Part shown: in pieces, positions 15,538 through 35,002 of the stretch
Layout of the letters: the number at the start of each line of letters is the position of its first letter
Position numbering within the stretch: the first letter of the stretch is position 1
NCBI RefSeq assembly: GCF_006345815.1
Contig: NZ_VCIG01000042.1
Coordinates: 124,001-188,000 of the forward strand
Length of the DNA: 64,000 nucleotides
Reading direction: 5' to 3'
DNA from: Ochrobactrum sp. CGA5
GTDB lineage: Bacteria > Pseudomonadota > Alphaproteobacteria > Rhizobiales > Rhizobiaceae
Notes under the pieces: generated by a model
Told to the model about the DNA's origin: nothing
Databases searched by the model: none
The model's input: the letters and a program-made list of their open reading frames with translations, nothing else
Position numbers and translations under genes: made by a program

Positions 15538-15539
15538 GA

Positions 15540-16788: not shown

Positions 16789-16820
16789 ACATATGGCAAA
16801 ATCACGTTTTCGCCATATGT
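16789..16820. repeat. Left 32-bp recombinase-like core site
   Basis: Two 13-bp inverted arms (ACATATGGCAAAA and TTTCGCCATATGT, one mismatch in symmetry) flank a 6-bp spacer TCACGT. A near-identical site with spacer TTCCCC lies at 34971-35002. The 13-6-13 layout resembles tyrosine-recombinase core sites. The two copies bracket the putative mobile element. No function has been shown. Confidence 0.6.
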
Positions 16821-16915
16821 TAGCAACCCATGAATTTCCAGCTCAGTGACGCTGGAAATTGCTCGATAATCCATTCGATATTTATCGTCCGACGGCACGC
16901 TATCGGAAGATTAAC

Positions 16916-17773
16916 TTAAATGATACCAGCGAGTAACCTCAACCGTTCCTGACGTTTATTCTCAGCTGTCTTTAGTTTCCGTTTCACCTGGTAGGCTGCA
17001 TTTTTGAGAATTTCATTGCCTTCTCCCCGACCAACCAAAAGGTCGTCAATATATGTGTCCCAAAGTATGTTATGCAGTTCAGCGGCTTGACCAGGGCGAA
17101 GCTCTGCTTTCTGAATTTTGAAGCGTCCGTTTCTGTTCGGAGCGATCGAGTATTGCTTCAACGGTGCCTTACACGCATACCAAACACGCTTCAGAATGGC
17201 TTCTAGTTGATGCTCGACGCAATAGGCGGCTGATAAGCCCAATGGCATTTTATCGGCATTTTGAAGATTTATTTCTTGTATTTTCTTAGCCAACTCAGCC
17301 GTTTGAATACCCGATCTAACCCATATAAATAAATGGGCGTGCCAGGACACCGTTTTCTTTCCTGTGCCGTTGAACCCGCCTCTTGGAAAGTAACCAGGCT
17401 CAATCAATCCCCAATAGTCAAACTCAATGAACCTAAATAAACACCGCTTTAAACACCTTAGTGCATTGAGGTGATCTCCATTTAGGGAGGTAATTGCTGT
17501 ATTGGGAGCAATGGTTACCCAGAAAGCACGAAACTCGGGGTTACGCCCGAGATAGCTACTGAATTCTTCATGCATTGTCTCCGCAAACGCAATTCGCGCT
17601 TCAACATTTGTCGCTTTAAGCGACAAAGCATTACATTGCTTCAAATTCTTCGTAGCTTCGCTGTGTAGGGCATCCCAACCGGTAATTGTCAGGATGAGTT
17701 TACGCAGCTTGCTGCGCTGCTTGTTGTGGGCATTAACAAATGCTTCTTTGTCCAGTATCGCCGGCATCGTCAT
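16916..17773 (-). CDS. HUH-type replication initiator-like protein
   Basis: This encodes 285 residues with no close family named. Two features of rolling-circle Rep/relaxase (HUH) proteins can be seen: WHAHLFIW (H145, H147), a His-hydrophobic-His metal motif, and a downstream WYACKAPLKQY (Y199, K202) fitting the YxxK catalytic motif. The spacing is reasonable for a small Rep. A perfect 13-6-13 palindrome lies 46 bases upstream and could be an origin or operator. It follows the AlpA-like and unknown genes on the same strand. Confidence 0.55.
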   Translation of the reverse strand: MTMPAILDKEAFVNAHNKQRSKLRKLILTITGWDALHSEATKNLKQCNALSLKATNVEARIAFAETMHEEFSSYLGRNPEFRAFWVTIAPNTAITSLNGDHLNALRCLKRCLFRFIEFDYWGLIEPGYFPRGGFNGTGKKTVSWHAHLFIWVRSGIQTAELAKKIQEINLQNADKMPLGLSAAYCVEHQLEAILKRVWYACKAPLKQYSIAPNRNGRFKIQKAELRPGQAAELHNILWDTYIDDLLVGRGEGNEILKNAAYQVKRKLKTAENKRQERLRLLAGII

Positions 17774-17818
17774 GGTAAGACACCCTTATTGGTTAATATC
17801 GATGTTTAGGCTAGTAAT

Positions 17819-17850
17819 ATAATCGGTATAATGTTGGTTATACCGATTAT
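17819..17850. repeat. Perfect 13-6-13 palindrome upstream of Rep gene
   Basis: ATAATCGGTATAA, spacer TGTTGG, then the exact inverse arm. It lies between the unknown gene at 17869 and the HUH Rep gene. It could be a double-strand origin hairpin, an operator or an attenuator. There is no T-run typical of a terminator. Confidence 0.6.
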
Positions 17851-17868
17851 TAAAGGGCTATTTGTGTG

Positions 17869-18534
17869 TTACAAGGGCGATATATCTGTGCCAATACGTG
17901 TTATTTTTGTAGAATTCTCATTCTTTTTCTTGACTGATACATGTGATGTTATTATAAATTCACCCTCACACCCCATTTCAGCCAGCCTTTTAATGTAAGC
18001 GGGCGATTTCTGATAAATAATGATCGGTTGACCAGTCTCCGAATTGCCGACTCCTCTCTTTTTGGCATTTTTTCGCGCAAGCGTTTCGATACCTTCATTC
18101 TTAAGCATTTCAGCAACAACATCTGGCGCTAGATCTTCCGCAAATGCTGCCGCTAAAGCGCGATTGTATTTGCTCAGCGTTTGTCGCTCCTTTGCTGAGC
18201 CATCAAAGAGGTACGCAAAAAAGAAACGCAGCGCCTCTTCTGGCTTATGCGATTTTGGTTTTTGTTTTCTGGATCTAAAAAATTCTTCCCTGCAAAAATC
18301 TTGCCAAGAATCATTGTCATTTTTACATGCACGAGCTAATCCATAAACTCGAGTAATTATACTGTATGTCTTTTCTCGCGTGCGTAATTCTAGATTATTT
18401 CTTTCCTCTTTAAGATCATTCAATTCTTTTATCAAATCCATCTTAATATCCTTCTTCTTATTTATATTCTGAAGGGCCGTACTTATTTTTTCTTTGGTTG
18501 CATCGCTAAGATCGATTTTCGCTCTCTTGTTCAT
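17869..18534 (-). CDS. Unknown protein of the replication module
   Basis: This encodes 221 residues, strongly charged and Lys-rich. A helical, probably coiled-coil N-terminal part (about 20-55: KKDIKMDLIKELNDLKEERNNLE) is followed by a central aromatic segment (EEALRFFFAYLFDG) and a basic C-terminal half. No domain is recognised. The ATG at 18534 is preferred because GGAGG lies 5-6 bases upstream, inside an earlier in-frame ATG at 18546. The DNA is clearly more AT-rich than the flanks. It lies between the AlpA-like and Rep genes and may serve replication or its control. Confidence 0.55.
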   Translation of the reverse strand: MNKRAKIDLSDATKEKISTALQNINKKKDIKMDLIKELNDLKEERNNLELRTREKTYSIITRVYGLARACKNDNDSWQDFCREEFFRSRKQKPKSHKPEEALRFFFAYLFDGSAKERQTLSKYNRALAAAFAEDLAPDVVAEMLKNEGIETLARKNAKKRGVGNSETGQPIIIYQKSPAYIKRLAEMGCEGEFIITSHVSVKKKNENSTKITRIGTDISPL

Positions 18535-18554
18535 TTCTGCCTCCATGCTTTGAA

Positions 18555-18911
18555 CTAATACTGGGAAGTGTTTTCGTGTTTGCGCGCTTCGATGAAGGTC
18601 AGCAAATCGCCGTACTGATATCGAACAGCGCCGCCGATCCGACGAAAGGGCAGCTTCTCAACGCCCTGTACGCGCCAATTGGCGAGCGTTTTTGAGCGAA
18701 GCCCTAGGATCGCTGCCGCTTGTTCCGAAGTTAAAAGATGTTCAGGCTGATAAGTAATGGGCGGCGGCGAGATAGCCTTCGCCATTCGCGGCTTTCGTTT
18801 AACCGACTTTGCGAAAACGCCAAGAGAAAGCCCATACTGACGAACGAGATGTTCGGTCAGTTCAAGATATGAATTTTCAAGAGAAGAAAGCTGCCTTCTT
18901 TTCTCGACCAT
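18555..18911 (-). CDS. AlpA/excisionase-like helix-turn-helix protein
   Basis: This encodes 118 residues. The C-terminal half is a MerR-like winged helix of the excisionase group: LLTSEQAAAILGLRSKTLANWRVQG, then LPFRRIGGAVRYQYGDLLTFIEARK. Such proteins act as directionality factors or regulators of integrated elements. The first 45 residues are a polar extension. It is first in a three-gene minus-strand run (AlpA-like, unknown, Rep), which supports a replication and excision module. Confidence 0.75.
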   Translation of the reverse strand: MVEKRRQLSSLENSYLELTEHLVRQYGLSLGVFAKSVKRKPRMAKAISPPPITYQPEHLLTSEQAAAILGLRSKTLANWRVQGVEKLPFRRIGGAVRYQYGDLLTFIEARKHENTSQY

Positions 18912-19277: not shown

Positions 19278-19898
19278 TTATACGTCTATACGCAATGCGA
19301 ACTCTAGCAAAATAATCGAACCCGGCTGAACGTGAGTACGACGCCGCTTCGGATCGATGAATCCTGCTGGCTGAAACGCTGATATGGCTAAGTGCGATTG
19401 GCGGTCGCTGTCAAAAAGATGCGCGCGCTGCTCGTCGAGTTGCTTAATGACGCACCAGTGATTGAGCGTTCCATACACCGCGGCCAGCACCGCAGTATTG
19501 GATTGCGCAAGGTGATCGCTGATTGTATTCACCGACTCCATTGCTTCTAAGGGCCTTCTGAGTGCAAACGGTCGGCGCATCACAACCCCGATGTTGTGAT
19601 ATTCACGCATGTGATCTTGTGCAACATGCGTCAAGGCGATCATGCCGTATAATGACAAGCCATCGTTCACCAGCTCAAGGTGACCGCGGCTTTTAATGGC
19701 GTGATCAGTCAGTTTTCGAAACAGCTCTTCCCAATGCTCGCCTTTGGCCGATACCAATTCATTTCGTAAGGCCCAGCGAATACCGTTGATCAGGGCATAT
19801 ACACCGCAAAGTGAATCGAGGTTGCCCTGGAGATAAGGCCTGAGCTTTGGCCGGTGATTATCCGCCATGATTGCGATTGCCAGTTGCTCAATATTCAT
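19278..19898 (-). CDS. Papain-like cysteine-peptidase-fold protein
   Basis: This encodes 206 residues. The segment LQGNLDSLCGVYALINGIRWAL (Q24, C31) looks like the oxyanion-hole Gln and nucleophile Cys at a helix start. LNHWCVIKQLD (H147) and LFDSDRQ (D163 or D165) supply a His and Asp in the order Gln-Cys-His-Asp of papain-like folds such as C39 or C58 peptidases. No signal peptide is seen, so it is probably cytoplasmic. It overlaps the DUF3768 gene by 11 bases and follows a tyrosine recombinase. The substrate is unknown; a deamidase or effector-like role is equally possible. Confidence 0.55.
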   Translation of the reverse strand: MNIEQLAIAIMADNHRPKLRPYLQGNLDSLCGVYALINGIRWALRNELVSAKGEHWEELFRKLTDHAIKSRGHLELVNDGLSLYGMIALTHVAQDHMREYHNIGVVMRRPFALRRPLEAMESVNTISDHLAQSNTAVLAAVYGTLNHWCVIKQLDEQRAHLFDSDRQSHLAISAFQPAGFIDPKRRRTHVQPGSIILLEFALRIDV

Positions 19899-20244
19899 CA
19901 GCGAGCATGATGGTCATAACCCGCACGGTCACATTGGGATCTGCCTTGTCAGGTGAATGCATCGACAAGCTCTCATCGTAATAGTCGATTTTCCAAAAAA
20001 CCGAATGCTGGGCGATTTGAACGAAGCCAAAGTCATGCTCGGTATGGGGATCGTTTTCCTCGGTGAAACTATCAAAGCTGCGAATGGCCTGAACAATGTC
20101 GTGTATCTCTGATTGCTGAAGTGCCGCGATCCGTTGTGTCATCATAATGCGACCGCCGATCCCGTATTTGCGCAAGCGATCATTGAGCGCCGCGATGATT
20201 TGAGATTGCAATATGTTCTTGCTTTGTTCTAGGCCGTTGGTCAT
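19888..20244 (-). CDS. DUF3768 family protein
   Basis: This encodes 118 residues. The signature FDSFTEENDPHTEHDFGFVQI, then VFWKIDYYDESLSMHSPDKADPNVTVRVMTIMLADEY, matches DUF3768, a small domain common on Rhizobiales plasmids and integrative elements. Function is unknown. AGGAGAA lies 7 bases before the ATG. The 3' end overlaps the protease-fold gene by 11 bases, which implies coupled translation. Confidence 0.8.
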   Translation of the reverse strand: MTNGLEQSKNILQSQIIAALNDRLRKYGIGGRIMMTQRIAALQQSEIHDIVQAIRSFDSFTEENDPHTEHDFGFVQIAQHSVFWKIDYYDESLSMHSPDKADPNVTVRVMTIMLADEY

Positions 20245-20314
20245 GCGAGGTTCTCCTCTGTTCAGGATCTAGGCTCATTTCATTGTTGTTGGAGTTAGGT
20301 AACTGAACGCTGGC

Positions 20315-20956
20315 TCAGATCAATCGAACGAGCTTGCGCTGGGCATCGCTGTCGCCATCGATATAGGATTGGGTGGTGGTGATCGATCGATGACCGGCGA
20401 GAAGCTGCACATCGCGCAGTGATCCACCGGCTTTGTGAACAAGCCTAGCGGCCTGCGTAACAAATGTCCGGCGGCCTGAGTGCGATGAGCATCCTTCCAA
20501 ACCGGCGAGCGTATAAATATGCTTAAACCAGTTGACGATGGATTTTGCTGACATTGCCCTGCCCCGCTCACTTACGATGACAGGGCCATTCAAATTGCCC
20601 CTACCCTTTGCAAGCTTTTGCAAAGCTTTTCGAAGATCGGGGTGTATCGGCACACGCCGAGGATGAGCATTTTTCGTAATACGACCCGGCAGGTTGATGG
20701 ACGTGCCGAGTTTGTTGTTGGCGTCGAGCAGCATTGACCATTCGATCTTGGCGATTTCGCCTGCACGAAGTCCAGCCTTGAAGCTTAAAAGCAACATGGC
20801 GGCATTGCGGTCAGGATGTCGGAGGGTATTTGCTGTTCGAAGCGCTTGTTTTATCTGGGTTGTATTCACCGTGCGGGCTTGCCGGTGCTGCGCCATTTTG
20901 GGCCTCGACTTGACAAACGATGTCGGCATTAAAGCCGAAAGTTCATCGCTTGTCAA
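20315..20956 (-). CDS. Short tyrosine recombinase
   Basis: Up to 213 residues make the catalytic domain only. The five key residues are present: Arg in GLRAGEIAKIEW, a Lys near RITKNAHPRRVPI, HSGRR (His-x-x-Arg), GHRS and the nucleophile in TQSYID. The usual N-terminal core-binding domain is missing or reduced. The open frame starts with TTG; ATG codons at 20929 and 20896 are alternatives. It leads the DUF3768/protease pair. It is the only complete recombinase between the two 32-bp sites, so it is the best candidate to act on them. Confidence 0.8.
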   Translation of the reverse strand: MTSDELSALMPTSFVKSRPKMAQHRQARTVNTTQIKQALRTANTLRHPDRNAAMLLLSFKAGLRAGEIAKIEWSMLLDANNKLGTSINLPGRITKNAHPRRVPIHPDLRKALQKLAKGRGNLNGPVIVSERGRAMSAKSIVNWFKHIYTLAGLEGCSSHSGRRTFVTQAARLVHKAGGSLRDVQLLAGHRSITTTQSYIDGDSDAQRKLVRLI

Positions 20957-21134
20957 GATGCAGCCATAATTATAGAAGCAATATCAATATCTTAGTAGTA
21001 TCCACTTCATTTTTCTCGTTGGAGACACTGCTTATTCTTCGAGGAAGAGTATGAACAAAATGACGCGTGCTTTCACACGGTTTTGCCAAATGCGTGTCAT
21101 GCCATTTGACAAAGCATACCCAAACCCAACCACA

Positions 21135-23184
21135 TCAAAACGGAATGTTTGTCGCCTTTGTTACACCAGTCTCCTGGCACATACGCACCGCCGTATTACC
21201 GATAATAACAAAATCGAAGCTCTTCTTTTGTTCGTTATAGATGCCCCAAAAGGGAGCATATCCAGAATAAGCGCCAAACTGGTTCTTACCGTTCACTGAA
21301 CCACAAACGGAATAACTGCCATCAAAGATCCTCGCCGCAGCGATATCATCCCGGAAACGTGCCGACGTCTCATCCCGAAGCTGCTGCCCGACTTGGCTCT
21401 TCACAACAGCGATATCGTCATGATCCAGTTGAACGGGCTTACCAGGGCCGTAGTTTACGATGCCAAACATGTAATACATGAGTGGGCTATCTTTCTTCAT
21501 CTGCATTTGCTGCTGTTCATCGAGGACGGATTGGCCGGTAGGAGAATTGACAATAAATGCACCCGGGTCTGTGTTTTGCGAGCAAAGTTTGCTCTGACTG
21601 CACGCTCCCCGGAGCAGACGGCATTTTTTCGACGTGGCTGACGGCTTCGATCCATTTTCGCTCTTCATTGAAATTGCCTTCAATCCGGCATTCATTGTCC
21701 ATTTGGCAGATTTTGAAGATTTCTTGGCCGACATTAGATTGGGTCAGGAAACCGTAGGAATTCCCGCCGTCACTCCCCGTGATTTCGAACGCACTGTCGG
21801 TCGAACCGACGACAATTCGCCCCGTCATGCTTTTTTGGACGACACTTTCTCCGGGAAATTGTTGGTCGCCCCCTCGCTGGCGCTCGCCAATTTTCCAGGC
21901 ACATATCGTTGCTGTTGTGCTTTTCCAGCAAGCTCCGTCCTGCTGCATATAACCAATAGCAATATCGGGCTGACTGTAACTACCTTTGCCAGCGTTCCAG
22001 TATCCGCTATGAACGGTCGAGACATGGTCGACATTCACAGCAGCCGAGTACTTGCCCGAATAAACAGAGAAGCTGCCACTTTTATCGGCTCGCCACTGGC
22101 ACGCGCCATCAGCATATGTTTCGCCGCCGACCGCAATGAGACAATCAATGGCGGAAAGATTGGGTGTTGAATTTGCAGTTTCTGTTGAATGCGGGCCGTT
22201 TTCATCATCGGCTTCAATCTTTGATCGAGCATACTCGGCGATCTCTTCAGTCGTCGGCAATGCGTAGAATGGCGAGGTGACCCCAGCAGCTTGCGGCAGG
22301 GTTTTAGGGTTACACCGGTTTAGCGCTGTCAATTGGTCGCCGTACTTGAATGAAAACCTCGTCGCGCTTTGGATCGTATAGATATCTTCGGTCGTCTCGA
22401 CGTCATCGAGATTGCGCCCGCAGGTTTGCTTCACACTATATTGCGACTGGCTTATTTTCTCGACATTCTCAAAACGGCAAGCGGAACTTGGCCAGTTCAG
22501 CGATTTGCTATCGGTATAAATGACGTTAGGCCCTAAACCGTCAGAACAATTGCCGTCAGCAATGGCGTAAAATCCCGATTGTATTGGCAAGCTGAAGCTC
22601 GAAGCCCCCATACGGCCTTCGGCGCAGGACCAAAGCATATCGAGTGCGTTGCTCGAGCCCTTGAGCGAAATGCTAAAGGTTTCATTGTTGAAGGTTATAC
22701 GAACCTTAGCTGCAGCACGGATACGGCTTTCAAGGCTGTCTTCTCCCGCCCCTGATGGCACGACAACTGTGTTTTGTGACGACGCTCTCACCGTCGTCGC
22801 TATTGACCGGTCGCTATCGAATGCAATCGCCCCCTTCCACTCCGTTCCTTGTTCAAGGCGCCAATCAGCTGACGTCAAACCAATCTGGAAAGTCTCATTG
22901 TTGTTTACATATATAATGGCGTGCACATTGTTCTTGATGTGACGCCCCATGACGCAGCCTTTTTCCGGGTCTTTTTGCTTTGGAAAAGCGATCCAGCCGT
23001 TTTCCTGGAAGATAATTTGCGGTTCGTTGGCGTAGCTCACTGAAGGCACTAGGACGCTCGCAGCAAAACTCAGCGATGCAATGAATGAACTGAGTAAAAA
23101 AACCTGACCAAGAACGAACTTTAAAGTGTTCGAACTTTGTGCGAGCTCAAGCGCTGGCGCTGAATGATTCTGCTCCATGATCAT
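21135..23184 (-). pseudogene. Large exported protein with one frameshift
   Basis: The frame from 23184 runs about 540 residues, then goes out of frame at the run gcaaaacac near 21570. The other frame continues from DPGAFIVNSPTGQSVLDEQQQ to a stop at 21135. Dropping one A joins them as LLANTDPGAFIVN. The joined protein would be about 680 residues, with an N-terminal hydrophobic signal or anchor (about 22-50) and a long Ser/Thr/Cys-rich extracytoplasmic region. No family is recognised. It begins 3 bases after the stop of the superinfection-immunity-like gene, so it is third in that operon. A sequencing error is possible. Confidence 0.65.
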
Positions 23185-23187
23185 ATT

Positions 23188-23769
23188 TTACCCCGTCTTG
23201 TGAATGTAGCGTTTGAGGATAGGTGCCTTAAGTGCTGTAAATTCTTCAGCCGAAATCGCTCCGCTTTCGAACAGCGTCTTCAAACGCTGCAACGCATTCA
23301 CGGTCTCAGCATCCGAATGGTCCTTCGATGGATTTGGGTTGCTTGTCGGGCTAACCGGCAAAGCGATCTTCTGATCCTCGTTCATACTGGGATCGACGCG
23401 AACATTAACAGGGTCATTGACGAAGAGATTGATGCCGCTTTCTCCGCCATTGCTGCCGTCTTCGCTAATGTGCACATAATGCAATGCCCAAACCAACGCG
23501 GCTACCCAACCGACAACCGTGCCGCCGAAGGCAAAATTGACGACGAATATGAGCCACCGGTTCGGATGTTGTCGACGAAACGCAACGATGGTTGGGATGA
23601 ATATTACAGCCATGATAACGATGATGGCAGCAATGAATGCAAACGCCAGAAGCGATGATCGCGCATCACCCTGCCCTGCCCAGGCATGTTCTGATAACGC
23701 TAAGGTCATCGTTGATGATAGGCCAAGCAGCGGCAAACGCCGCCGCTTTGATAGAAAATGCTCCCCCAT
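23188..23769 (-). CDS. Superinfection-immunity-like membrane protein with SHOCT tail
   Basis: This encodes 193 residues. Two hydrophobic helices surround IFIPTIVAFRRQHPNRWLIFVVNFAFGGTVVGWVAALVWAL (about 55-100), which matches the phage superinfection immunity family (Imm_superinfect, PF14373), known for blocking phage DNA entry. The C-terminal 30 residues (ALQRLKTLFESGAISAEEFTALKAPIL) form a SHOCT domain. It is the second of three co-directional genes. The fusion of the two domains is common in bacteria; actual phage exclusion here is inferred. Confidence 0.75.
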   Translation of the reverse strand: MGEHFLSKRRRLPLLGLSSTMTLALSEHAWAGQGDARSSLLAFAFIAAIIVIMAVIFIPTIVAFRRQHPNRWLIFVVNFAFGGTVVGWVAALVWALHYVHISEDGSNGGESGINLFVNDPVNVRVDPSMNEDQKIALPVSPTSNPNPSKDHSDAETVNALQRLKTLFESGAISAEEFTALKAPILKRYIHKTG

Positions 23770-23778
23770 GGCCCCACC

Positions 23779-24300
23779 TCACCTGGACGAGCGGGGCAGC
23801 ACATTGGCTTTCAATTGCTGGAATTCATCTTCGTCGATCGCTCCAGAGGAGCGCAACGATGCGATTTTTTCCAACTGATCGAGAGAGTCCCCCGAAGCTG
23901 GAGTCGCAGGCTTGGATCCAGCAAATCGTTCATCCGGTTCGGATCCCGGTGCGAGGTCAAATCGGTTTCGGCCTGGCGCCGATGGCAGGCACATGAAAAT
24001 CAGCACGGCGAGCTGACCAATCAGCGGCACGAACACCGCCAACAACCACCAAACTGATCTGTCGGTATCATGCAGGCGACGAACGCCAACAGCGATCGAC
24101 GGAACCAGGTGGGCCAAATACACCAAGCCGGTAATTACCCCCGCAGGCTCATCAGTGGTCGTATCGCCAAAAACCTGATCCATCATCAAGGCAATGATCA
24201 ACATTCCGAACAATACCAGGCTGAACAGCCAATACTGCGACCGCGTCGCGCGCCCCGAAAACACAGCATACTGCCGCATGGCATTCACATAATGATGCAT
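23779..24300 (-). CDS. DUF805 membrane protein with SHOCT tail
   Basis: This encodes 173 residues. The DUF805 region (AVFSGRATRSQYWLFSLVLFG, then PSIAVGVRRLHDTDRSVWWLL) has three or four membrane helices. The tail SLDQLEKIASLRSSGAIDEDEFQQLKANVL is a SHOCT domain, similar to that of the next gene. GGGGGAG lies 6 bases before the ATG at 24300, which overrides the longer frame. It leads the three-gene membrane cassette 24300-21135 and is divergent from the Xre gene at 24441. Confidence 0.8.
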   Translation of the reverse strand: MHHYVNAMRQYAVFSGRATRSQYWLFSLVLFGMLIIALMMDQVFGDTTTDEPAGVITGLVYLAHLVPSIAVGVRRLHDTDRSVWWLLAVFVPLIGQLAVLIFMCLPSAPGRNRFDLAPGSEPDERFAGSKPATPASGDSLDQLEKIASLRSSGAIDEDEFQQLKANVLPRSSR

Positions 24301-24440
24301 GTTTACTCCCCCAAGATGGTGTCCAAATGTACGAAACGGCACGCCTTCAGCTGTGCGTAAGTGCCGAAGGGTGCCGCCTATGATTAATATGTCGAATATA
24401 TACGATGGATTAATAAGGATCAAGGTGGTCGCGTTCGGGC

Positions 24441-24707
24441 ATGAACGCACGCACCCGAATTGCTTGGAATTTAAGGCAAATACGCTCAAACCAGGGCATT
24501 ACGCAGGAGAACCTTGCGGTCGATGCAAATGTTGATCGCACCGCAATCAGCGGCATCGAAACGGGTGACTACAACCCCACTATCGATTTGCTCGAGCGAC
24601 TGGCTGAAGCGTTGTCGATAGACATTGTGGATTTAGTTTCAAAAGTGCCTGACGGAGCTCAAGCGCCTCGGCCCATGCGTGCGGGCCGAAAACCGAAGCG
24701 CAGTTAG
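24441..24707 (+). CDS. Xre-family regulator 1
   Basis: This encodes 88 residues. The helix-turn-helix RIAWNLRQIRSNQGITQENLAVDANVDRTAISGIETGDYNPTIDLLERLAEAL is followed by a short basic tail (RAGRKPKRS). It is likely a DNA-binding repressor. It is divergent from the DUF805/SHOCT operon with 140 bases between, so it may regulate that cassette. It is related in layout to the Xre gene at 24861. Confidence 0.85.
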   Translation: MNARTRIAWNLRQIRSNQGITQENLAVDANVDRTAISGIETGDYNPTIDLLERLAEALSIDIVDLVSKVPDGAQAPRPMRAGRKPKRS

Positions 24708-24846: not shown

Positions 24847-24860
24847 CCAACAATCCACGC

Positions 24861-27465: not shown

Positions 27466-30400
27466 TCACTGGGCGGCATCAGTGAAAGGCATGTCTCTCT
27501 TGATGTTTTTGAACGTCTCGCTCAGCTGAAGTGCAGCGCTGCGGCGGTCGCCCATATCGACCAGAAAATCCAGAATCCGTAACATCTTCTGTGCTAGGCT
27601 GATATCGAGAGATTGCCTCTTCTCAGACAGGTTTTGTACCATGACCGCGATACGAGCGGGCAACATGGTGTTGGTCCAGCCCGCTCTGGTCAGGTCTTCC
27701 ATCTCGAAAATTGCGATCACCTGATCGGAAAACCGCTCAGGCGGGTAGTGTTCCGCAGCTCTTTCCACAAGTGTAAGGTAGTCTTCTGCCACAGAGGGCA
27801 CCCAACCCGCCGTTTTGATGAACTTGTCGACGAGCGGCATCACCACTTCAATCTCTGACCAGTCGCCGTTTGCAAACCGTGCGGCCATGTCGGCCTTGGG
27901 GACATGGACGAACATGAATGACGGAATGAGACGAGGAAGGTCATAGCCGTAGACTTCGCCTTCCCGATACGAACGCCGTTCGAAGGTTCTGTCTTGAAGG
28001 ACGCGGGTCAACGCGGAATCAAGAATGGCAATCGCATCAGGCGACACTTCATCGGCGTCCAGCACTGTCAGGCAAATGAAAATATCGACAAAGCCGGAGA
28101 GGAGCGACAGGCTTTGCTCGTCGTCGAGCTGATAGATTTTTGACAGATATCGAGTGGTCGCGTCCTCTTCACTGAGGTGGGTACAGACATAGGCAAGTGT
28201 GTTCGACAATTGACCGATCCATTGAAGAAGGTCGGTATGCCTATCGTCACGTCCGTGCGGGTCGTCCTCTCGCCAGCTAGGGTTCATTCGCTCCAACGTC
28301 CAATCCAGCAGGCTATCGGCCAGCGTGAGGAACTTCGTACGCAATTCAGCATCAACCATGAGCTTGCCGACTGGAATGAACGTAAGAACTTCTCTAGCTG
28401 AATCCCAATCCCAGTAGCGACGAGGATCCTGCCAGACCATTTCGGCGTCATCGTCCTCCTGGTCAATGCCGTCGCCTTCTTCAGCGAACCAGTTCATTCG
28501 TTCTTGCGGGGCCAACTCCCACGCTGCTGGAGGGGTGATCAGTTCAGGGTAGCCAGAAGACGCGAGGTATGCCTCGATCGAACTTTGCGCGACGTCCAGT
28601 CGCTCGGTTTGTTCACGCTGAGCATCAAACGAACGCCCCCCACTTCCGCGCGGTGGCCGTTGCCGAATGCAGAGGCGTAATCCGAGATCGAGACCGGTCC
28701 ATGCAAGTCGCCGGTCGCTGTCCCAGCATGCAAGGCACTGCTTGGTCGCCTCACGGCTTACCTGATCTAACGGATGCACCGTCAGGGCCAAAAGTCGTTC
28801 CGCTGCTTCGTGATGTTCGGACTCTTGCGAAACTTGGCTTGCCAGAGCCTTGGCAACAAACAGCAGCGGGTGCCACGGGATAATCGAGCCAGCGAACCAG
28901 TCTTCGTCGGGTTCAGGAGTTCGGAACGCACGGTCCAATACATCCCTGGCCCACGACCGAAAATCGTCGCTGCTCTCATCCGGAAAGCAGAAGGCGACGG
29001 CTGCCGCTCCCGCTACCGCGCCGCGCGTCATATCGCTAATGTCCCCGCTGTCTCGCTGGGTAAACATTTGCGCGTGGTCGATACCCTTTGCCGTTTCCCA
29101 CGCCTCGCCGATAGTCATCCGTGCAGATATGGTACCGTTCTGAAATGTATCGGTGACCCAATTAAACAGCGCCATTTCGCGCATGGTTTGTTCGTGACGC
29201 TGCGCAGCCTCTACCGATTTAGGCTCTTCGCTCTTGGGGTTCTCCAGGTAGACGAGCTGCTTGCCTGGCTCGTCCGGGAGCTTTTGGCTGCGGTAGTTTT
29301 CCAACTTGCCCCACTCGGCCCAATTGTCTGCGGTTTCCCGCAATTGCTGAGCATGGACATCGTTTTTTCGTTGCTCTTCGTATTCGAACGGCAGGTCGTT
29401 GGGGAAGTTTTGTATCGCTATCTGTGCTGCTTCGCGAAGCGCATCGTTGCCACAAAGCACAAAGAGCTGCGCCAATTGCCGCAGCTCCATTTTTCGGCAT
29501 GGCCGTTCAAAGTCCTTTTGAACGGCCTCGATATGGGGTCGGTCGCTGCGCTTCCCCCTGAACCCGATCAACATCGACTGTGAGCTGCCGTGTTCGTTGA
29601 CCCAGCGTTGGACATCAGCGTGCCACAAACGCTGGTTGGTCACGAGCGGCAGCGTCGCTTCAGAAACGCGCTTTGTTTCGAGAGCGATGCAAACGGCGAT
29701 GGCGAGCGGTGTGACGCTTTCATGGCCTTCGACGATGCGCCGGATTACTTCGTCCGGTTCGGCGCCTGCCTCAATTTGCTCGAAGGCCCACGAATCCACT
29801 GCATGAAGAGCGCATTTGATGGCTTGAGGACCCCACCAACCCCGGCCCCAAAGGTATTCTCTGGTGCCACCCCACATTATTTGCGTGCCCCAGGGAAAAG
29901 CGAACTCCGATGAAATGAGTGTACCGCGTCGATCGTAATCGAGGCGATGCAATTGACGCCAGGCGGTGATGGCGTGGTTGCAAAGCCGGCGCGTGAGGCG
30001 CAGTGCGGTTTCAGCGCTGTGTTGGAACAATGACCGAAATGGTTCTCTAAGCGGTGAAGCGGGAAAATAGGTACCCCTGCTGTCGTCGATCGCCAGATGA
30101 TCCCAGTCCCAGTGAGAGACGCCGCCAATCAGGCCAAGGGACGGTGGGCTGTCCAACATGCGCTGTTCGAGTTGTGTCAGTTCACTTTCCGGTTTGGCAC
30201 GTAGTCGCTCCCTTTCTTCGGCGTGTTCCTGTGCCTCGCGGCGCAGGCGATTTTGCGTATCTTCCGGCAACTCCTTTATGAGTTGCGCCTCCGCAAACGC
30301 CGCTAGCTCCTCGGCATGGGTTTGCGCCAGCGTGGCTGAGAATCCAATAATGTCCTGATAGACGTCGAAATGGATACGCTCCTGGGTCGAAAACCTAGCC

Positions 30401-32916
30401 AGATAGTCACTGACCACGTTCGGGTATGACTCCGCAGACAAAATCACAAGGGAACGAAGCTTGGATGCCAGCCCTGAAAGGGCTTCACGTCGGCCGACAT
30501 CACCCCATTCCCCCAAATCCGTTGAAAAGCGGCGAGGATACTCAACGGCCTCGATGCTTGTAAGCCATGCGAACGCTTGAGAGACGATCCGCTCCGAGAT
30601 GACATTTGGAATTCCGCGAAGAGCGTTCTGCCAGACCTCAAACACCGGCAAAATTTGCGGTACGAGCGTCTTCGGAAGAGCATCTAGCCTGGCAAAGATC
30701 CAGCCCAGCATTTGCTGCCACATCGTGAAGTCGGATGGCCATCCGAGCGCGTCGGCATATCGAATGATCTCACTTCGATCGAGGTCCTTGGTCGCCGCGT
30801 TGTGCGATAGGATGTAGTCGTTTGGGCGCGTCCGTTCCGCCTGAAACCAAACCAACACTTTTTCCAGCAATCGGTAGTTGTCAGCGTCGACAACCCGGTC
30901 AAACACTTCCACGTGTTCGTTGAAATCTGTCGCGCTGAGTGGACCCAGTAGCCATGCGCGCATCCACTGACTTCTCAGGTTTGAGGCCTCGATACGCGCT
31001 AGGTTTGATTGCCAATTCTCTTCGTTGGCAAATTCCAACTGTGACAGCAATTCAACGACACGACCGAGTACCGGAGGTTCGCCAACTGCGCTGATTGCCC
31101 CAATCCAATCGTCTTCGTCCTTAAGCGAGTGAAGAAATGACCATTCAAAAAAAATGTCGTGAGAGAATTTTGCGCTGTGGCCTTCCTCAACTTCCTCAAT
31201 GATGCCGTCCGCAATCAGCGCCTGAAGCGTATCGATCGTTGCATGCTTGAGCCGGGAAAGCGCAAAAGGCCGTCCCAACTGACGGCAGGCAGCGCGCGCA
31301 AGGTCAATGATCGCGCGTTGTCGCAGCAAGACCTCGGAAGAGGAGGCGTTATAGCCGCCGCCTCGCCACCAGCGTTGTGTCAGGTCGATTTCCGATCGCG
31401 GTGCCGAAATTGTATCGCCAGAGGACAGCTCTCGGGCCAACACCGATGCAAAGAACGGACGACGAGCGATCTGCTGCACCTGAGGTGTAGAAAACAGCAG
31501 GGGACGCAAACCAGGCAGGTCGTCCGCAAGCGCGGTGGCTTCATTGTCATCGAATGGCCTGACTTCCACCATGCCGATACCCTGCATGGCAAAAAGCTCA
31601 GCGGGGAGCCAGTTGCGCAGCGGCTCAATCCCGATGTCACGAGCGGTGACAACGACGCGCCAGTCGCTCAGCGCCTCGGAGTGCAGGATCGGTTGAAGCA
31701 GGTCAGTGACAATGTTGCGTTGCGCCGACTCAATGCGATCGATGCCGTCTATGAACAGATAGGGCGTCCCTAGCGCCCCGATTTCCGCGAGCAGGGTCTT
31801 CGGGTCATGGCAGGACAATCCGATGGACTGCGCGAAGGCCTGCCAACTGTTCCCCGCCAAGCGGTCGGGAGTCAGAAACAGAATCGGGCCCGCGGCCAGA
31901 CAGTTCAGGGCAAGATGTTTCAGTGCGGCGGTTTTGCCTGTACCTGGCAACCCGTGGACTTGAACGAACCGATGATTTTTTGCGGCTTCGTCCAGCGCTT
32001 CATGTAGTTTCGGGCGTGGAACCGCCACACCGCCAATCCGAACTTCAATGGATTGCGGCCAGTCCGTGGCAATGGTCTTTACAAGCTCAATATCGTTCCG
32101 CAATACACTGCTACCGCGAAATTGGAATCGTCCCTTAAGTGCCAACAAGAGGTTAGGACGTTCAAGGGAAGCTGCCCGTCCTCGGCTCTCGCTGGCGAGG
32201 CGCAGCAGGGCTTCCCAGAAGTCCTGACCGCGTCCTGACTTGGAATCGGCGAGAACACTTTGGAGCTGCTGAACTAACAGGGGTGAGGTGGCTTCGCCCT
32301 CATGCAAGGCATCCATCTGAATGGCCACGAAATGCCTGAGAAACCGATGCGATTGAGCTTCATCGAGTTTCGCGCCTGTGTACTCGGCCAGAATGCTCTC
32401 TATTGCATTCTTTATTTGGCGGTGCGTTGCGCTTGCGGGGCCGTCTGTTGCGAAACGTTTGGCAAAGTGTGTTGCATCGGCGCTGGCGCGTGCCCAGTCA
32501 CAAACATTTCGTAGCGCGCGAAGACGATCGGCCGAGATGGTGTCCACCACACAGCCATATCGATCGATGCCCTCCCGAAAATCGGGCTTGGCCAACGTAT
32601 CCCAACTGGCTGTGATGACGCTTCGAAAGTCGGTATTGGTCGTTCCCGCCCCAATTCGAAGCGATCTCTTAACTTGAAGGCTTAGTTGCGCGGCGGAGCC
32701 ATCGTTGGCATTCGCATCTACGATAAGATCGTCGAGTGGGTGACCGAAGGACGACTGTTGGAACGACACCCTCGCAACGACATATGCGTCAAGGCTCGGT
32801 GCACCGGTTTCTGCGAGCAGGCTCGCCAAATAGACGCCAGCAACCCTATCCTCATAGGTGAATCCGCTGCCGGCGGTAAGCTCGGCGGACTGTGTATGCT
32901 CGGTCGACTCGCTCAT
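27466..32916 (-). CDS. STAND/NACHT-like NTPase with N-terminal nuclease-like domain
   Basis: This encodes 1816 residues. The first 120 look like a PD-(D/E)xK-type nuclease: E22 in FTYEDRV, D62-D63 in HPLDDLIVD, and Q81-V82-K83 in LSLQVKRS. A P-loop NTPase follows, with Walker A GLPGTGKT (322-329), Walker B YLFIDGID (386-393) and a sensor-like VVVTARD near 420. The C-terminal 1100 residues are helical and tryptophan-rich, as in repeat-type ligand-sensing regions. This layout matches NLR-like anti-phage proteins such as Avs, which sense phage proteins and cleave DNA. Its membership in any named family is not established. A zinc-ribbon gene lies just upstream. Confidence 0.7.
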   Translation of the reverse strand: MSESTEHTQSAELTAGSGFTYEDRVAGVYLASLLAETGAPSLDAYVVARVSFQQSSFGHPLDDLIVDANANDGSAAQLSLQVKRSLRIGAGTTNTDFRSVITASWDTLAKPDFREGIDRYGCVVDTISADRLRALRNVCDWARASADATHFAKRFATDGPASATHRQIKNAIESILAEYTGAKLDEAQSHRFLRHFVAIQMDALHEGEATSPLLVQQLQSVLADSKSGRGQDFWEALLRLASESRGRAASLERPNLLLALKGRFQFRGSSVLRNDIELVKTIATDWPQSIEVRIGGVAVPRPKLHEALDEAAKNHRFVQVHGLPGTGKTAALKHLALNCLAAGPILFLTPDRLAGNSWQAFAQSIGLSCHDPKTLLAEIGALGTPYLFIDGIDRIESAQRNIVTDLLQPILHSEALSDWRVVVTARDIGIEPLRNWLPAELFAMQGIGMVEVRPFDDNEATALADDLPGLRPLLFSTPQVQQIARRPFFASVLARELSSGDTISAPRSEIDLTQRWWRGGGYNASSSEVLLRQRAIIDLARAACRQLGRPFALSRLKHATIDTLQALIADGIIEEVEEGHSAKFSHDIFFEWSFLHSLKDEDDWIGAISAVGEPPVLGRVVELLSQLEFANEENWQSNLARIEASNLRSQWMRAWLLGPLSATDFNEHVEVFDRVVDADNYRLLEKVLVWFQAERTRPNDYILSHNAATKDLDRSEIIRYADALGWPSDFTMWQQMLGWIFARLDALPKTLVPQILPVFEVWQNALRGIPNVISERIVSQAFAWLTSIEAVEYPRRFSTDLGEWGDVGRREALSGLASKLRSLVILSAESYPNVVSDYLARFSTQERIHFDVYQDIIGFSATLAQTHAEELAAFAEAQLIKELPEDTQNRLRREAQEHAEERERLRAKPESELTQLEQRMLDSPPSLGLIGGVSHWDWDHLAIDDSRGTYFPASPLREPFRSLFQHSAETALRLTRRLCNHAITAWRQLHRLDYDRRGTLISSEFAFPWGTQIMWGGTREYLWGRGWWGPQAIKCALHAVDSWAFEQIEAGAEPDEVIRRIVEGHESVTPLAIAVCIALETKRVSEATLPLVTNQRLWHADVQRWVNEHGSSQSMLIGFRGKRSDRPHIEAVQKDFERPCRKMELRQLAQLFVLCGNDALREAAQIAIQNFPNDLPFEYEEQRKNDVHAQQLRETADNWAEWGKLENYRSQKLPDEPGKQLVYLENPKSEEPKSVEAAQRHEQTMREMALFNWVTDTFQNGTISARMTIGEAWETAKGIDHAQMFTQRDSGDISDMTRGAVAGAAAVAFCFPDESSDDFRSWARDVLDRAFRTPEPDEDWFAGSIIPWHPLLFVAKALASQVSQESEHHEAAERLLALTVHPLDQVSREATKQCLACWDSDRRLAWTGLDLGLRLCIRQRPPRGSGGRSFDAQREQTERLDVAQSSIEAYLASSGYPELITPPAAWELAPQERMNWFAEEGDGIDQEDDDAEMVWQDPRRYWDWDSAREVLTFIPVGKLMVDAELRTKFLTLADSLLDWTLERMNPSWREDDPHGRDDRHTDLLQWIGQLSNTLAYVCTHLSEEDATTRYLSKIYQLDDEQSLSLLSGFVDIFICLTVLDADEVSPDAIAILDSALTRVLQDRTFERRSYREGEVYGYDLPRLIPSFMFVHVPKADMAARFANGDWSEIEVVMPLVDKFIKTAGWVPSVAEDYLTLVERAAEHYPPERFSDQVIAIFEMEDLTRAGWTNTMLPARIAVMVQNLSEKRQSLDISLAQKMLRILDFLVDMGDRRSAALQLSETFKNIKRDMPFTDAAQ

Positions 32917-32991: not shown

Positions 32992-34056
32992 CTAAATATC
33001 GAACAAATCGAGGTCGACTTTCGAGAGCAACCAGCCAAACGGAAAATGTTGATTTGTCAGGCATCCATCGCACTCGATGCTCTCAGCGATAAATAGCCTC
33101 GGCGCTTCCGACTTCTTGATGCGAAGCTGCGCGTTGCACACCGGACACTGCATGAATTCCCCGAAGTTCGAATTCACGAAGTTGGTAATACGGGATCGAT
33201 CCTTGGTGAAAAGAGCTTCGTACGTTCCCAGCGAAGTGAATAGCATCCAGTTTTGATACTTCTTACTGGACTCCCGCATGCGCCCATAAAGCTCGATCTG
33301 CATGACGTGCAAAAACAAAAGCAGCATGGCCAGCTGCGAGTACGTGCCACCTGAATAGATGTCATCATCCAGTGGATTCTTGAAAATGAAGTTCAGGTTG
33401 TAGTCTTCTGTCTGGTTTCGCCGAAACTCGGTGACCAAATGGGTAGCCTTGTCGAAGAGTCCTGCAAATCCCGCTTCGTTCTGGAAGTTGAAGGCTGCAT
33501 CGTAGACAGCATCGGGATTTGTGAAACTGGAGCCCTTCGTGGCGGTCATCGCTGCTTCAAGGAGGCTCTTGATACCAGCTTCGTCGAGTTCGGTTCTGCG
33601 CAGGAGGTTTTTGGCATCCGTTTTCAGTTTGTCGAAGAATGCTCTTTCGTCCGCACACATTTGCGCCGCGATCAGCAGGCTTTCCTTGAGTGGTTTTCTG
33701 AGCAGCGAAAACGCGACCGTGAATTTTCTTTTTTCCAAGGAGCGAAGTGCTTCGTAGATAAAGTGAAGCATGTCCGCAAAGAGCGCATTGCAGACGTGGT
33801 TCACCACCGCACGACGCTCCAATTCCCCTCTGCCAGTTTTTTCTAGGAAGTCCAGGATATGGACTCCGCTCTCAAGCAGACGCTTATCGTCCTCCGATTC
33901 GATCTCGAAATGGATATGTCCCGCTTTCTGGATTTCCATCTGCACTAGCAGGCCAGCCATGAGGTCGTGGAGATGGAAACAAAACTCGTGCTGAGCTTGG
34001 GATTTTTTCGGAATGTTCCGCAAACGCTCAGAGTCGATGATTCCTATCGGCTTCAT
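32992..34056 (-). CDS. Unknown protein with C-terminal zinc ribbon
   Basis: About 354 residues, mainly helical. A C-terminal CPVC ... CDGC pair (about 302-335) forms a likely zinc ribbon. The N-terminal part is His/Glu-rich and helical (HEFCFHLHDLMAGLLVQ). No catalytic motif is recognised. The ATG at 34056 has a G-rich site 9 bases upstream; the open frame extends to 34113. It precedes the STAND gene by 75 bases on the same strand and is probably co-transcribed with it. Confidence 0.6.
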   Translation of the reverse strand: MKPIGIIDSERLRNIPKKSQAQHEFCFHLHDLMAGLLVQMEIQKAGHIHFEIESEDDKRLLESGVHILDFLEKTGRGELERRAVVNHVCNALFADMLHFIYEALRSLEKRKFTVAFSLLRKPLKESLLIAAQMCADERAFFDKLKTDAKNLLRRTELDEAGIKSLLEAAMTATKGSSFTNPDAVYDAAFNFQNEAGFAGLFDKATHLVTEFRRNQTEDYNLNFIFKNPLDDDIYSGGTYSQLAMLLLFLHVMQIELYGRMRESSKKYQNWMLFTSLGTYEALFTKDRSRITNFVNSNFGEFMQCPVCNAQLRIKKSEAPRLFIAESIECDGCLTNQHFPFGWLLSKVDLDLFDI

Positions 34057-34362
34057 GTCAGTGCGTCCCCCTGCGGTTCGAAAGCGAGCGAACCGAATTC
34101 GTCGTCTCCGCATTCATTGGCATTGTCCGTTATGTTTAGCCGCCTCGTCGACGGTTAGCATTCGAAGAACGACTTATCGAACAGCGTCTCCGGACCCATC
34201 AATAACCTCGTGCACTATTAGTTAGCAACCGATGCGGCACCAATTCTTAAGTCAATGTAAAGTTTACTATTTCCAATGTCGCAAAGCTCGCAGTCTCTTT
34301 CAACCCGCTGCAATCGAAATCACTTCATCGTCTGCTAGAAGATCAGGTCGGGCCGAACTCCC

Positions 34363-34721
34363 TTGAAATCCAAATATTCGTTTTTAAAATTACACTCGTC
34401 CGACACCCCAGTCCCCCTACAAAGGGAAAGTGTTCAACATACAGGGTCTGACTTGGAGCTTTTTCTATTCGAGCGCTCACATAGCCTATCTGCAACTATT
34501 AATGAGCTGAAATGGAAAGCCAAACTTCTTCGCCGTGAAGAGGGTATTCCTGGAACCAGGCGCTAACTCGCATTGCCAATCAAGAAGGTTATGCAAGCTC
34601 GGGTTTATTGATCCGTGATTATGAAGCCCATAAACCCAAACCAACGGCTTTGCCCAAAACCGGCTATCTCATTGAGACCCTTCCGGTCGATTTAGAGTAT
34701 CGAGGGCAGGCAATCGATTGA
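34363..34721 (+). pseudogene. Relic of an LK-x-AK-type (glyoxalase-superfamily-like) protein
   Basis: The frame from a TTG at 34363 reads SLSATINELKWKAKLLRREEGIPGT and then stops. One base off, it continues ALTRIANQEGYASSGLLIRDYEAHKP to a TGA at 34719-34721. The join (GIPGT-QALTRIANQEGY) resembles the helical domain found in proteins named glyoxalase superfamily in Rhizobiales plasmids and islands. One missing base near 34559 explains the break. There is no ATG. It lies between the cargo and the right 32-bp site. Confidence 0.5.
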
Positions 34722-34951
34722 CAACTACCACTTTTGAGAACGTGATGCGTCGGATAGAACCTGACAAACCTGAAGGGACGAGATCGCTTTGGGGTGCGGC
34801 AGAATATATCGACCGTCACCACCTGAGCGCGGACATGCTGCCGATCGACAGCGAATATGACTACAATCGGGTTGGATGCCGAATGTCTGCTTCTTCGGAT
34901 TTTCGGCGAGAACCGGACAGTCCGCAGTCGGCCCCTTTCCGGTCAATATGA
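34718..34951 (+). other. Doubtful short reading frame beside right core site
   Basis: The frame starts with TTG overlapping the preceding TGA. Its first 50 codons (FENVMRRIEPDKPEGTRSLWGAAEYIDRHHL) look protein-like, but the rest merges with repetitive intergenic text. It may be a gene fragment. Confidence 0.25.
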
Positions 34952-34970
34952 ACGCTAGTTTGACGCGACT

Positions 34971-35002
34971 ACATATGGCAAAATTCCCCTTTTGCCATAT
35001 GT
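34971..35002. repeat. Right 32-bp recombinase-like core site
   Basis: Perfect 13-bp inverted arms (ACATATGGCAAAA and TTTTGCCATATGT) flank the 6-bp spacer TTCCCC. It differs from the site at 16789-16820 almost only in the spacer. A partial extra copy of one arm (CTTTTGCCATGTC) lies at 35036-35047. Confidence 0.6.

What the first reader, a model, noticed from the sequence alone, without database searches (positions are those of the whole stretch)
16789..35002. An 18-kb element bounded by two near-identical 32-bp recombinase-type core sites
Seen: 13-bp inverted arms ACATATGGCAAAA with 6-bp spacers TCACGT (left) and TTCCCC (right), only differing otherwise by one arm base. Between them lie a short tyrosine recombinase, an AlpA-like protein, an HUH Rep-like protein and defence-like cargo; outside are stress genes with EcfG promoters. 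Known: tyrosine recombinase cores have 11-13 bp arms around 6-8 bp, and Tn916-like elements tolerate spacer mismatch. Inferred: this is an integrative element with its own Rep, not inserted in a tRNA.
Basis: partly seen in the sequence, partly recalled or inferred. Interest (0 to 1): 0.75.

Follow-up and report, generated by a model that had tools for sequence, protein, structure and literature searches.

The report
Mobile gene modules with palindromic junctions
The 18-kb stretch is bounded by a 32-base recombination site that also marks the ends of other exchangeable gene blocks (defence genes, metabolic operons) in Brucella/Ochrobactrum relatives, apparently served by a very small recombinase; this suggests a little-known way for these bacteria to shuffle gene blocks.

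Summary
The two 32-bp sites are real (16789-16820, 34971-35002) and the only ones in the genome at up to 3 mismatches. They belong to a family: palindromic 13-bp arms, highly variable 6-nt spacer, in 17 of 35 genus genomes (30 places; reversed-pattern control 0) and in Pseudochrobactrum. They behave as recombination junctions. Of 28 site pairs sharing any flank, 23 share only one; when the comparison point is moved 600-1200 bp away, none do. B. tritici matches the window to the last base of the left site, then diverges. One locus carries the site without cargo in two genomes, with identical arms but different spacers. A 12.2-kb catabolic block, without recombinase, has different neighbours in different genomes. 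A catalytic-domain-only tyrosine recombinase, with DUF3768 and AlpA-like genes, lies between paired sites here, in B. tritici (across a contig break) and in two Pseudochrobactrum elements. Cargo differs: NACHT/Avs-like here, Gabija-like in B. tritici. Best reading: a module-shuffling system with symmetric sites and spacer tolerance, resembling pdif modules and Tn916-type exchange but failing a defining feature of each. Unproven: the acting enzyme (14 of 17 site-bearing genomes lack a close homologue), circle formation, and whether the 18 kb moves as one unit.

The parts
16789..16820 (.). Left 32-bp recombination site, spacer TCACGT, one arm base off (TTTCGCC)
   Evidence: identity with B. tritici LMG 18957 ends at base 16820
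34971..35002 (.). Right 32-bp recombination site, perfect arms, spacer TTCCCC
   Evidence: same site in B. tritici C90:14618
16916..17773 (-). HUH-Rep-like protein (WHAHLFIW, later WYACK)
   Evidence: motifs read by eye in an alignment with three relatives at 16-24% identity; no Pfam hit
17869..18546 (-). 225-aa protein of unknown function
   Evidence: ORF; no family; weak match in two Paracoccus plasmids
18555..18911 (-). AlpA-like HTH_17 protein, candidate directionality factor
   Evidence: PHROG 66, excisionase and transcriptional regulator
19278..19898 (-). 206-aa protein found near the recombinase in relatives
   Evidence: 7 of 13 compared loci; no family
19888..20244 (-). DUF3768 protein, usual neighbour of the recombinase
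   Evidence: 9 of 13 compared loci
20315..20956 (-). Tyrosine recombinase, catalytic domain only (213-aa ORF; conserved start at M21, about 193 aa)
21135..23184 (-). Overlapping ORFs of 555 and 199 aa; B. tritici has a single 682-aa ORF here
23188..23769 (-). Imm_superinfect + SHOCT protein
23779..24489 (-). DUF805 + SHOCT membrane protein
24441..24707 (+). HTH_3 repressor-like protein
24985..25081 (.). 98-bp stretch 82% identical to DNA about 217 bp from a site in B. tritici; possible old inner end of the core
25328..26977 (-). Cargo: 549-aa protein, unknown
   Evidence: no family
27466..32916 (-). Cargo: 1816-aa NACHT protein with DUF626-type N-terminus and an Avs4-like part
32992..34113 (-). 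Cargo: 373-aa protein, unknown
   Evidence: no family
34929..34970 (.). Inner terminal DNA next to the right site, shared with B. tritici, and in G400 and G405 joined to other DNA
35113..35184 (+). tRNA-Ser 3' fragment just outside the right site (probably another event, not part of the element)

Best explanation
The 32-bp palindromes are core sites for a tyrosine recombinase. The same enzyme binds both inverted 13-bp arms, two sites pair, and strands are exchanged at the two edges of the 6-nt spacer. Product sites are hybrids: each arm stays with its own flank and the spacer comes from one parent. Because unlike spacers recombine or are replaced, any site can receive any module, which over time gives loci with an empty site, with one module, or with an array. 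The window holds an autonomous module type, coding for the short recombinase, an AlpA-like candidate directionality factor, an HUH-like Rep that may copy an excised circle, and defence cargo. Modules without such a recombinase (carbohydrate catabolism, ABC transport, amide use, defence) carry the same sites and would be moved in trans. Shown: the sites, breakpoints concentrated at the sites, unlike spacers at one orthologous locus, recombinase between paired sites. Inferred: that this recombinase acts on them, circle formation, Rep function, movement in trans.
For: 23 of 28 site pairs sharing a flank share only one; moving the comparison point by 300 bp leaves 1 and 3, by 600-1200 bp none, while pairs sharing both rise from 5 to 8-13. 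Window vs B. tritici: identical to base 16820, then unrelated. A 12.2-kb catabolic module, 98.5-99.8% identical between most pairs of four genomes (two of them B. tritici; 97.3% over a longer stretch for G400/G420), starts at the site with different outer neighbours; its arm variant ...CATATGA stays with it in 4 of 4 places, while in G400 the spacer is TTCCC, one base short of the window's TTCCCC. Locus X without cargo in G424 and G427: same arms, spacers ACCCCA vs GGTGAA. Recombinase between two sites in the window, G362 C2 and G362 C19 and, across a contig break, B. tritici. The 3 genus genomes with a close recombinase (one copy broken) all have sites. A 50% relative on a Paracoccus plasmid lies 3.8 kb from one similar palindrome. 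Catalytic residues invariant in 10 relatives.
Against: 14 of the 17 site-bearing genus genomes have no close recombinase homologue and one (G418) has a copy with two stops: 2 of 17 intact. Other tyrosine recombinases lie near two sites: G399 (1.3 kb) and a full-length one in G284 C21 (2.4 kb). Of 11 more distant genomes or records with a homologue, one (a Paracoccus plasmid) has a clear site, G356 a weak one 9.9 kb away, G221 and W03 only remote 3-mismatch hits, 7 none (limited to that pattern). The right-hand homology of the catabolic module ends about 170-315 bp short of the site. The G362 C1 element has both sites on one side and a tRNA-Thr gene on the other. Some spacers differ by one or two bases, so part of their diversity may be drift. 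No circle and no empty window site was seen. Flank pairs are not phylogenetically independent (without G421, a near-copy of G422: 3 both, 19 one).
Confidence: 0.68

Rival explanations
1. The sites are real recombination sites, but the 18-kb interval is a composite left by several events and no longer moves as one unit.
For: B. tritici has the same outer flanks and both sites but a different Rep end and different cargo (Gabija-like) around a 97% identical core; in G400 the terminal DNA of the window element joins the catabolic module; a 98-bp stretch like DNA near a B. tritici site lies inside at 24985-25081; the two spacers differ at 4 of 6 positions.
Against: The compact 8.9-kb G362 C19 element has a similar gene order between two sites with unlike spacers, so whole-unit movement remains plausible.
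Confidence: 0.3
2. Another recombinase, not the window's short one, acts on the sites.
For: Most site-bearing genomes lack a close homologue; other tyrosine recombinases lie near sites in G399 and G284 C21.
Against: All five intact close copies found (window, B. tritici, three in G362) are in elements with sites; site and close recombinase are both rare in the family sample (5 of 394 genomes with a site, and the 2 with a close recombinase among them).
Confidence: 0.2
3. The host XerC/XerD enzymes act on the sites, as for pdif modules.
For: 6-nt spacer, modules without recombinase, shuffling, as in dif modules (PMC13141974, passages).
Against: Arms are 13 bp and inverted copies of each other, not distinct 11-bp XerC and XerD boxes such as ATTTCGTATAA and TTATGTTAATT. 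Unlike spacers exchange. The site is confined to few genomes: 5 of 394 in the family sample.
Confidence: 0.08
4. The palindromes are passive short repeats; RecA-dependent or illegitimate recombination between them gives the mosaics.
For: Any dispersed repeat can seed rearrangement.
Against: Only 26 conserved bases interrupted by unlike spacers; 1-4 copies per site-bearing genus genome; locus X keeps arms and flanks while the spacer differs; a recombinase sits between paired sites in four elements.
Confidence: 0.08
5. The palindrome is a target hotspot for an IS or transposon, which brought the modules in.
For: Transposase genes lie close to several sites: 375 bp in G284 C21, 280 and 540 bp outside the G362 C19 sites, and by eye in G362 C2, G284 C14, G426, G050 and the B. 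tritici C71 contig end. IS1202-family elements are reported to target pdif sites (PMC10132070, abstract start).
Against: The transposases are of different types; breakpoints coincide with the 32-bp site itself; no shared terminal repeat or target duplication was noticed, though none was searched for systematically.
Confidence: 0.07
6. The sites are ordinary operators or terminators.
For: A look-alike hairpin with a near-constant centre occurs elsewhere in G000, G418 and G419.
Against: Spacers and flanks are unrelated between most places and breakpoints fall on the site; only 2 copies in the own genome.
Confidence: 0.01

Closest known systems
pdif (XerC-XerD) dif modules of Acinetobacter plasmids (PMC13141974, passages read)
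   Same: Modules bounded by short sites with a variable 6-nt spacer; modules without recombinase; extensive shuffling
   Different: There 28-bp sites of two distinct 11-bp boxes, host XerCD, and identical or nearly identical spacers in the recombinations described; here 13-6-13 symmetric sites, mostly on large contigs (up to 2.8 Mb, probably chromosomal), unlike spacers exchange, and some modules code for their own short recombinase
Tn916-type coupling sequences, and SE / Tn554 elements with a 6-bp footprint (PMC10214605, passages read; Tn916 details partly recalled)
   Same: 6-nt overlap differs between the two ends and is replaced at the target
   Different: SEs have two integrases (intA, intB), two further conserved genes and no HUH endonuclease; here one catalytic-only recombinase, both arms alike at the sites, and an HUH-like Rep
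GInt islands (PMC5385486, abstract start; three integrases as stated in the passages of PMC10214605)
   Same: Non-conjugative islands moved by tyrosine recombinases
   Different: GInts carry three integrases; here one was found
Catalytic-domain-only recombinases such as FimB/FimE (size and role recalled)
   Same: About 200 aa without a core-binding domain; NCBIfam's tyrosine-type DNA invertase model matches weakly (E 6e-5)
   Different: The best-scoring named models are XerC and XerA; it sits in a mobile element with paired sites

Membership tests
dif/pdif modules | 28-bp site of distinct 11-bp XerC and XerD boxes around 6 bp | tested here: not met
   Site is 13-6-13 with inverted-copy arms; pdif boxes quoted
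dif/pdif modules | Recombining sites share identical or nearly identical spacers | tested here: not met
   Locus X spacers ACCCCA vs GGTGAA; 17 of 23 one-flank pairs have unlike spacers, 3 of them by one base and 5 by length
dif/pdif modules | Modules without a recombinase | tested here: met
   No recombinase family among 10 ORFs of the catabolic module, 5 of the 5.8-kb module and 5 of the amide module or 6 of the G428 defence module. The family profile gave none there, except a marginal hit (E 0.025) overlapping the outer edge of the 5.8-kb module in G405
dif/pdif modules | Catalysis by host XerC/XerD | not testable with these tools
   Needs an in vitro or genetic assay
Tn916/CTnDOT-type elements | Integrase with core-binding and arm-binding domains | tested here: not met
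   213 aa; aligns to XerD residues 100-286 and to XerC model positions 105-278 of 295
Tn916/CTnDOT-type elements | Variable 6-nt coupling sequences exchanged between element and target | tested here: met
   Unlike spacers at locus X and at the module junction in G400; exchange itself is inferred from comparison
Tn916/CTnDOT-type elements | Conjugation genes | tested here: not met
   No relaxase or secretion-system Pfam family among 14 main ORFs of the interval (10, 4); smaller ORFs were not scanned; the MobT model matches only a helix-turn-helix part
SE / Tn554 | Two tyrosine recombinases in a conserved operon | tested here: not met
   One Phage_integrase protein among the 14 scanned ORFs and one family-profile hit in the window
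GInt | Three integrases | tested here: not met
tRNA-integrated island | Boundary in a tRNA 3' end | tested here: not met
   No tRNA gene in the window; a tRNA-Ser 3' fragment lies 110 bp outside the right site
Rolling-circle HUH replicon | HUH motif plus a YxxK motif in the Rep | tested here: inconclusive
   HxH in 3 of 4 and YxxK in 4 of 4 sequences, by eye; no significant family hit; model unusable

The most novel reading that the evidence does not exclude
A module-shuffling system of Brucellaceae chromosomes in which a minimal catalytic-only recombinase, supplied by autonomous HUH-Rep/AlpA/DUF3768 elements, acts on symmetric 13-6-13 sites without needing matching spacers, so that recombinase-less operons and defence cassettes are captured, exchanged and stacked in trans across species.
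Probability: 0.4. Interest if true: 0.78.

Novelty: new variant of a known kind. Interest (0 to 1): 0.62.

Why it matters
If right, part of the accessory genome of Brucella/Ochrobactrum and Pseudochrobactrum is exchanged through one 32-bp site, which gives a sequence tag for module ends and empty sites. It would extend the dif-module idea from plasmids to large replicons and from host XerCD to a dedicated small recombinase, with symmetric sites that work despite unlike spacers, a point that can be tested directly. The cargo slots (NACHT/Avs-like, Gabija-like, SMC-type ATPase, methyltransferase/Vsr/helicase block) are places to look for further defence genes.

Tried and rejected
Operators or terminators: rejected by the breakpoint control and low copy number. 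tRNA insertion of this element: no tRNA gene in the window, though a tRNA-Ser fragment is near. XerCD: arms do not fit. DNA relatives of the left end in the plasmid collection: none. Viral contigs with the site: none. The right end matched only short parts of plasmids, in the listed rows mostly the tRNA fragment (20 of 29 records listed). Palindrome pairs around recombinases of 47-62% identity in G363, G221, G151, G356, G312, Bradyrhizobium, Paracoccus and Piscirickettsia: no convincing pair (the Piscirickettsia and P. albus records entered only in 59 and 61). In one search the reversed-pattern control had 1 hit, in G362. Structure of the Rep-like protein: 2-sequence alignment, mean pLDDT 39.7; no fold search was run on it. 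A site-free ancestor of locus X could not be settled: two distant genomes with the left gene show no site or half-site (L094, L095) and G397 has a decayed one. My recombinase profile did not report the G284 C21 integrase that Pfam recognises, so it shows only close relatives.

Left out of the 42-place site set: the two chance-like scan hits (Massilia, a Clostridia MAG; arms decay outside the pattern), the decayed G397 site, the weak G356 site and the Paracoccus site. That set was chosen by similarity to the arms (up to 4 mismatches), so arm conservation in it is partly by construction; spacer and flanks were not selected. G421 and G422 are near-copies and both were counted there; one search gives counts without G421. 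The shift control did not mirror reversed pairs; one search does and is the one cited. Handles G421 to G431 are taken as the same genomes as G409, G419, G403, G411, G397, G418, G417, G398, G362, G284 and G050, because contig numbers and site coordinates agree. After re-checking I raised the IS-hotspot rival from 0.06 to 0.07 and added the other-recombinase rival, because several transposases and two other recombinases near sites had been left out.
Full report
What is there. The two sites exist exactly as described and are not chance: 2 matches at up to 3 mismatches in the window, none in 100 shuffles, and no third copy in the 4.6-Mb genome. Its genus group holds a genome (G419) whose contig numbers and coordinates match those of B. 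tritici LMG 18957, so the genus is Brucella in the wide sense, with former Ochrobactrum.

How far the site reaches. In a sample of 394 family genomes 5 carry it. In the genus, 17 of 35 genomes carry it at 30 places, the reversed pattern at none. A scan of the GTDB contig collection for its 20-base core gave 19 stretches: 17 in Brucella, Ochrobactrum, Pseudochrobactrum or an unclassified Rhizobiales genome, and 2 elsewhere whose arms decay outside the searched core. Viral contigs gave none. Among 42 collected places, chosen by arm similarity, the inner arm bases ATGGCAAAA are kept in 76 to 84 of 84 arms per position, while the unselected spacer has 24 forms, counting reverse complements as one. 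Some spacers differ by one or two bases, so drift contributes. Two places have a 5-nt spacer.

Why they are recombination junctions. First, all 861 pairs of places were compared in both orientations: 5 share both 150-bp flanks and 23 share only one. If the comparison point is moved 300 bp off the site, 1 and 3 one-flank pairs remain; at 600, 900 and 1200 bp on either side, none. The pairs are not independent; without the near-copy G421 the counts are 3 and 19. Second, B. tritici LMG 18957 is 99% identical to window 3607-16820 and the identity stops at the last base of the left site. Third, a 12.2-kb module is 98.5% or more identical between G421, G422 and either of G400 and G420 (97.3% over 13.2 kb between G400 and G420), begins at the site, and has different outer neighbours in G400, in G420 and in the two B. 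tritici genomes. Its other end is less clean: homology with B. tritici stops about 170-315 bp before the site. Its terminal arm variant stays with it in 4 of 4 places, while in G400 the spacer is TTCCC, close to the TTCCCC of the window-type right end to which it is joined there. Fourth, at locus X, G424 and G427 align over 12.9 kb at 96% across one site, with identical arms but spacers ACCCCA and GGTGAA; G397 has a decayed version; G423 shares only the left flank and G428 only a short right flank. Unlike spacers between otherwise matching sites are what Tn916-type exchange leaves, and differ from pdif recombination, where spacers are described as identical or nearly so.

The modules. The 12.2-kb module codes for two short-chain dehydrogenases, an FGGY carbohydrate kinase, E1 alpha and beta type dehydrogenase subunits with a lipoyl-domain protein, a sugar-type ABC transporter and a sugar-binding regulator. 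A 5.8-kb module (G405 and G426, 88%) codes for an ABC transporter, an inositol-monophosphatase-like protein and a DeoR regulator; next to it in G426 lies an amide/urea-type module with a formamidase. G428 has a block with a C5 methyltransferase, a 1957-aa helicase, Vsr and an HNH protein. G423 and G428 share a block of amino-acid-type transport and catabolic genes read by eye. None of the 26 scanned ORFs is a recombinase. A profile of the window recombinase found strong matches only in the window, B. tritici and three G362 elements, a weaker one near a site in G399, and a marginal one in G405. Pfam confirms the G399 protein and a full-length integrase near the G284 C21 site as tyrosine recombinases, so other enzymes are possible.

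The recombinase element. The window enzyme aligns only to the catalytic half of XerD and XerC, and the catalytic residues are invariant in the 10 sequences aligned. DUF3768 lies with the recombinase in 9 of 13 compared loci (G151, G221, G312, G356, G363, G362 C19, three Paracoccus plasmids; not in G418 C49, Bradyrhizobium or two Piscirickettsia plasmids), the 206-aa protein in 7 of 13, and both lie with it in the other two G362 elements. In G362 C19 a compact 8.9-kb element lies between two sites of variant arms: DUF927 (primase/helicase-like), HUH-like Rep, AlpA-like, 206-aa protein, DUF3768, recombinase, then an SMC-type ATPase and a partner. G362 C2 has another, its recombinase between sites at 4595 (4 mismatches) and 31296. 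On the 41.7-kb Paracoccus marcusii plasmid a relative at 50% identity lies 3.8 kb from a single palindrome of similar sequence, the arrangement expected of a circle with one site.

The interval itself. In B. tritici the same two sites and outer flanks enclose a 97% identical core (window 19354-25157), a different Rep (23-24% identity), an AlpA-like protein at 73%, and a Gabija-like pair (OLD-type TOPRIM ATPase plus UvrD helicase) where the window has a NACHT/Avs4-like protein and two unknown genes. The B. tritici interval spans a contig break (C71 end, C90 start), so its continuity is inferred. Exchange has therefore gone on inside the interval, and whether it still moves as one unit is open.

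What speaks against the enzyme assignment. Of 17 site-bearing genus genomes 2 have an intact close recombinase, one a copy with two stops and 14 none. The gene may be lost after use or act from outside, or another enzyme may be responsible. Of 11 more distant genomes or records with a homologue, 1 has a clear site, 1 a weak one within 10 kb, 2 only remote 3-mismatch hits and 7 none, with the pattern used. In G362 C1 and G428 element genes reach to within about 300 bp of a tRNA-Thr gene on the side away from the sites, and in G405 a tRNA-Thr lies farther out, so tRNA-type integration is mixed in. Transposase genes near several sites keep an IS-hotspot reading alive.

Novelty. In the held open-access library the listed results (8 of 8; 14 of 14; 10 of 85; 10 of 20; 5 of 5) show no title describing this system; DUF3768 with integrase gave 0 papers, and any four of tyrosine recombinase, rolling circle, integrative, DUF927, AlpA gave 0. 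For PMC13141974, PMC8138268 and PMC10214605 passages were read; of the others only listings with abstract starts. I class it as a new variant of a known kind: it works like pdif modules crossed with Tn916-type exchange, but fails a defining feature of each.

Noticed in passing
window 35113-35184: 3' part of a tRNA-Ser gene (89% over 71 nt to the tRNA-Ser(cga) gene on contig C30; 30 nt identical to tRNA-Ser(gct)), probably the boundary of a separate integration event.
   Followed up: partly
L016 12750-12825, L076 15601-15676, L134 18285-18360; G423: tRNA-Thr(cgt) genes lie beyond the element side away from the sites in G362 C1, G428 and G405; in G423 a tRNA 3' remnant followed by an integrase-like reading frame was seen by eye.
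   Followed up: partly
window 19278-19898: The 206-aa recombinase neighbour has a Cys...His...Asp pattern (DSLCGVYA, NHWCVI, LFDSD) reminiscent of papain-like proteases (by eye); no family hit.
   Followed up: no
window 24804-24846: Perfect 16-bp inverted repeat with an 11-nt gap near the HTH gene, possibly its operator.
   Followed up: no
window 21135-23184: Two overlapping ORFs (555 and 199 aa) where B. tritici has one of 682 aa, so the gene looks interrupted in the window.
   Followed up: no
L069 10361-13502: Gabija-like pair (OLD-TOPRIM ATPase and UvrD helicase) in B. tritici in the slot that holds the NACHT gene in the window.
   Followed up: partly
G050 C41:18404 and window 16821-16897: Transposase remnant (IS5-like by eye) directly beside the site; possible IS targeting of the site as reported for pdif.
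   Followed up: no
G000 C48:212783-212810: Look-alike palindrome TCATGGCAAAGGCGAGGCTTTGCCATGA with a near-constant centre in three genomes, more like a terminator hairpin than a site.
   Followed up: partly
phages collection: Recombinases at about 37% identity occur in large Caulobacter phages (CcrRogue, phiCbK types).
   Followed up: no
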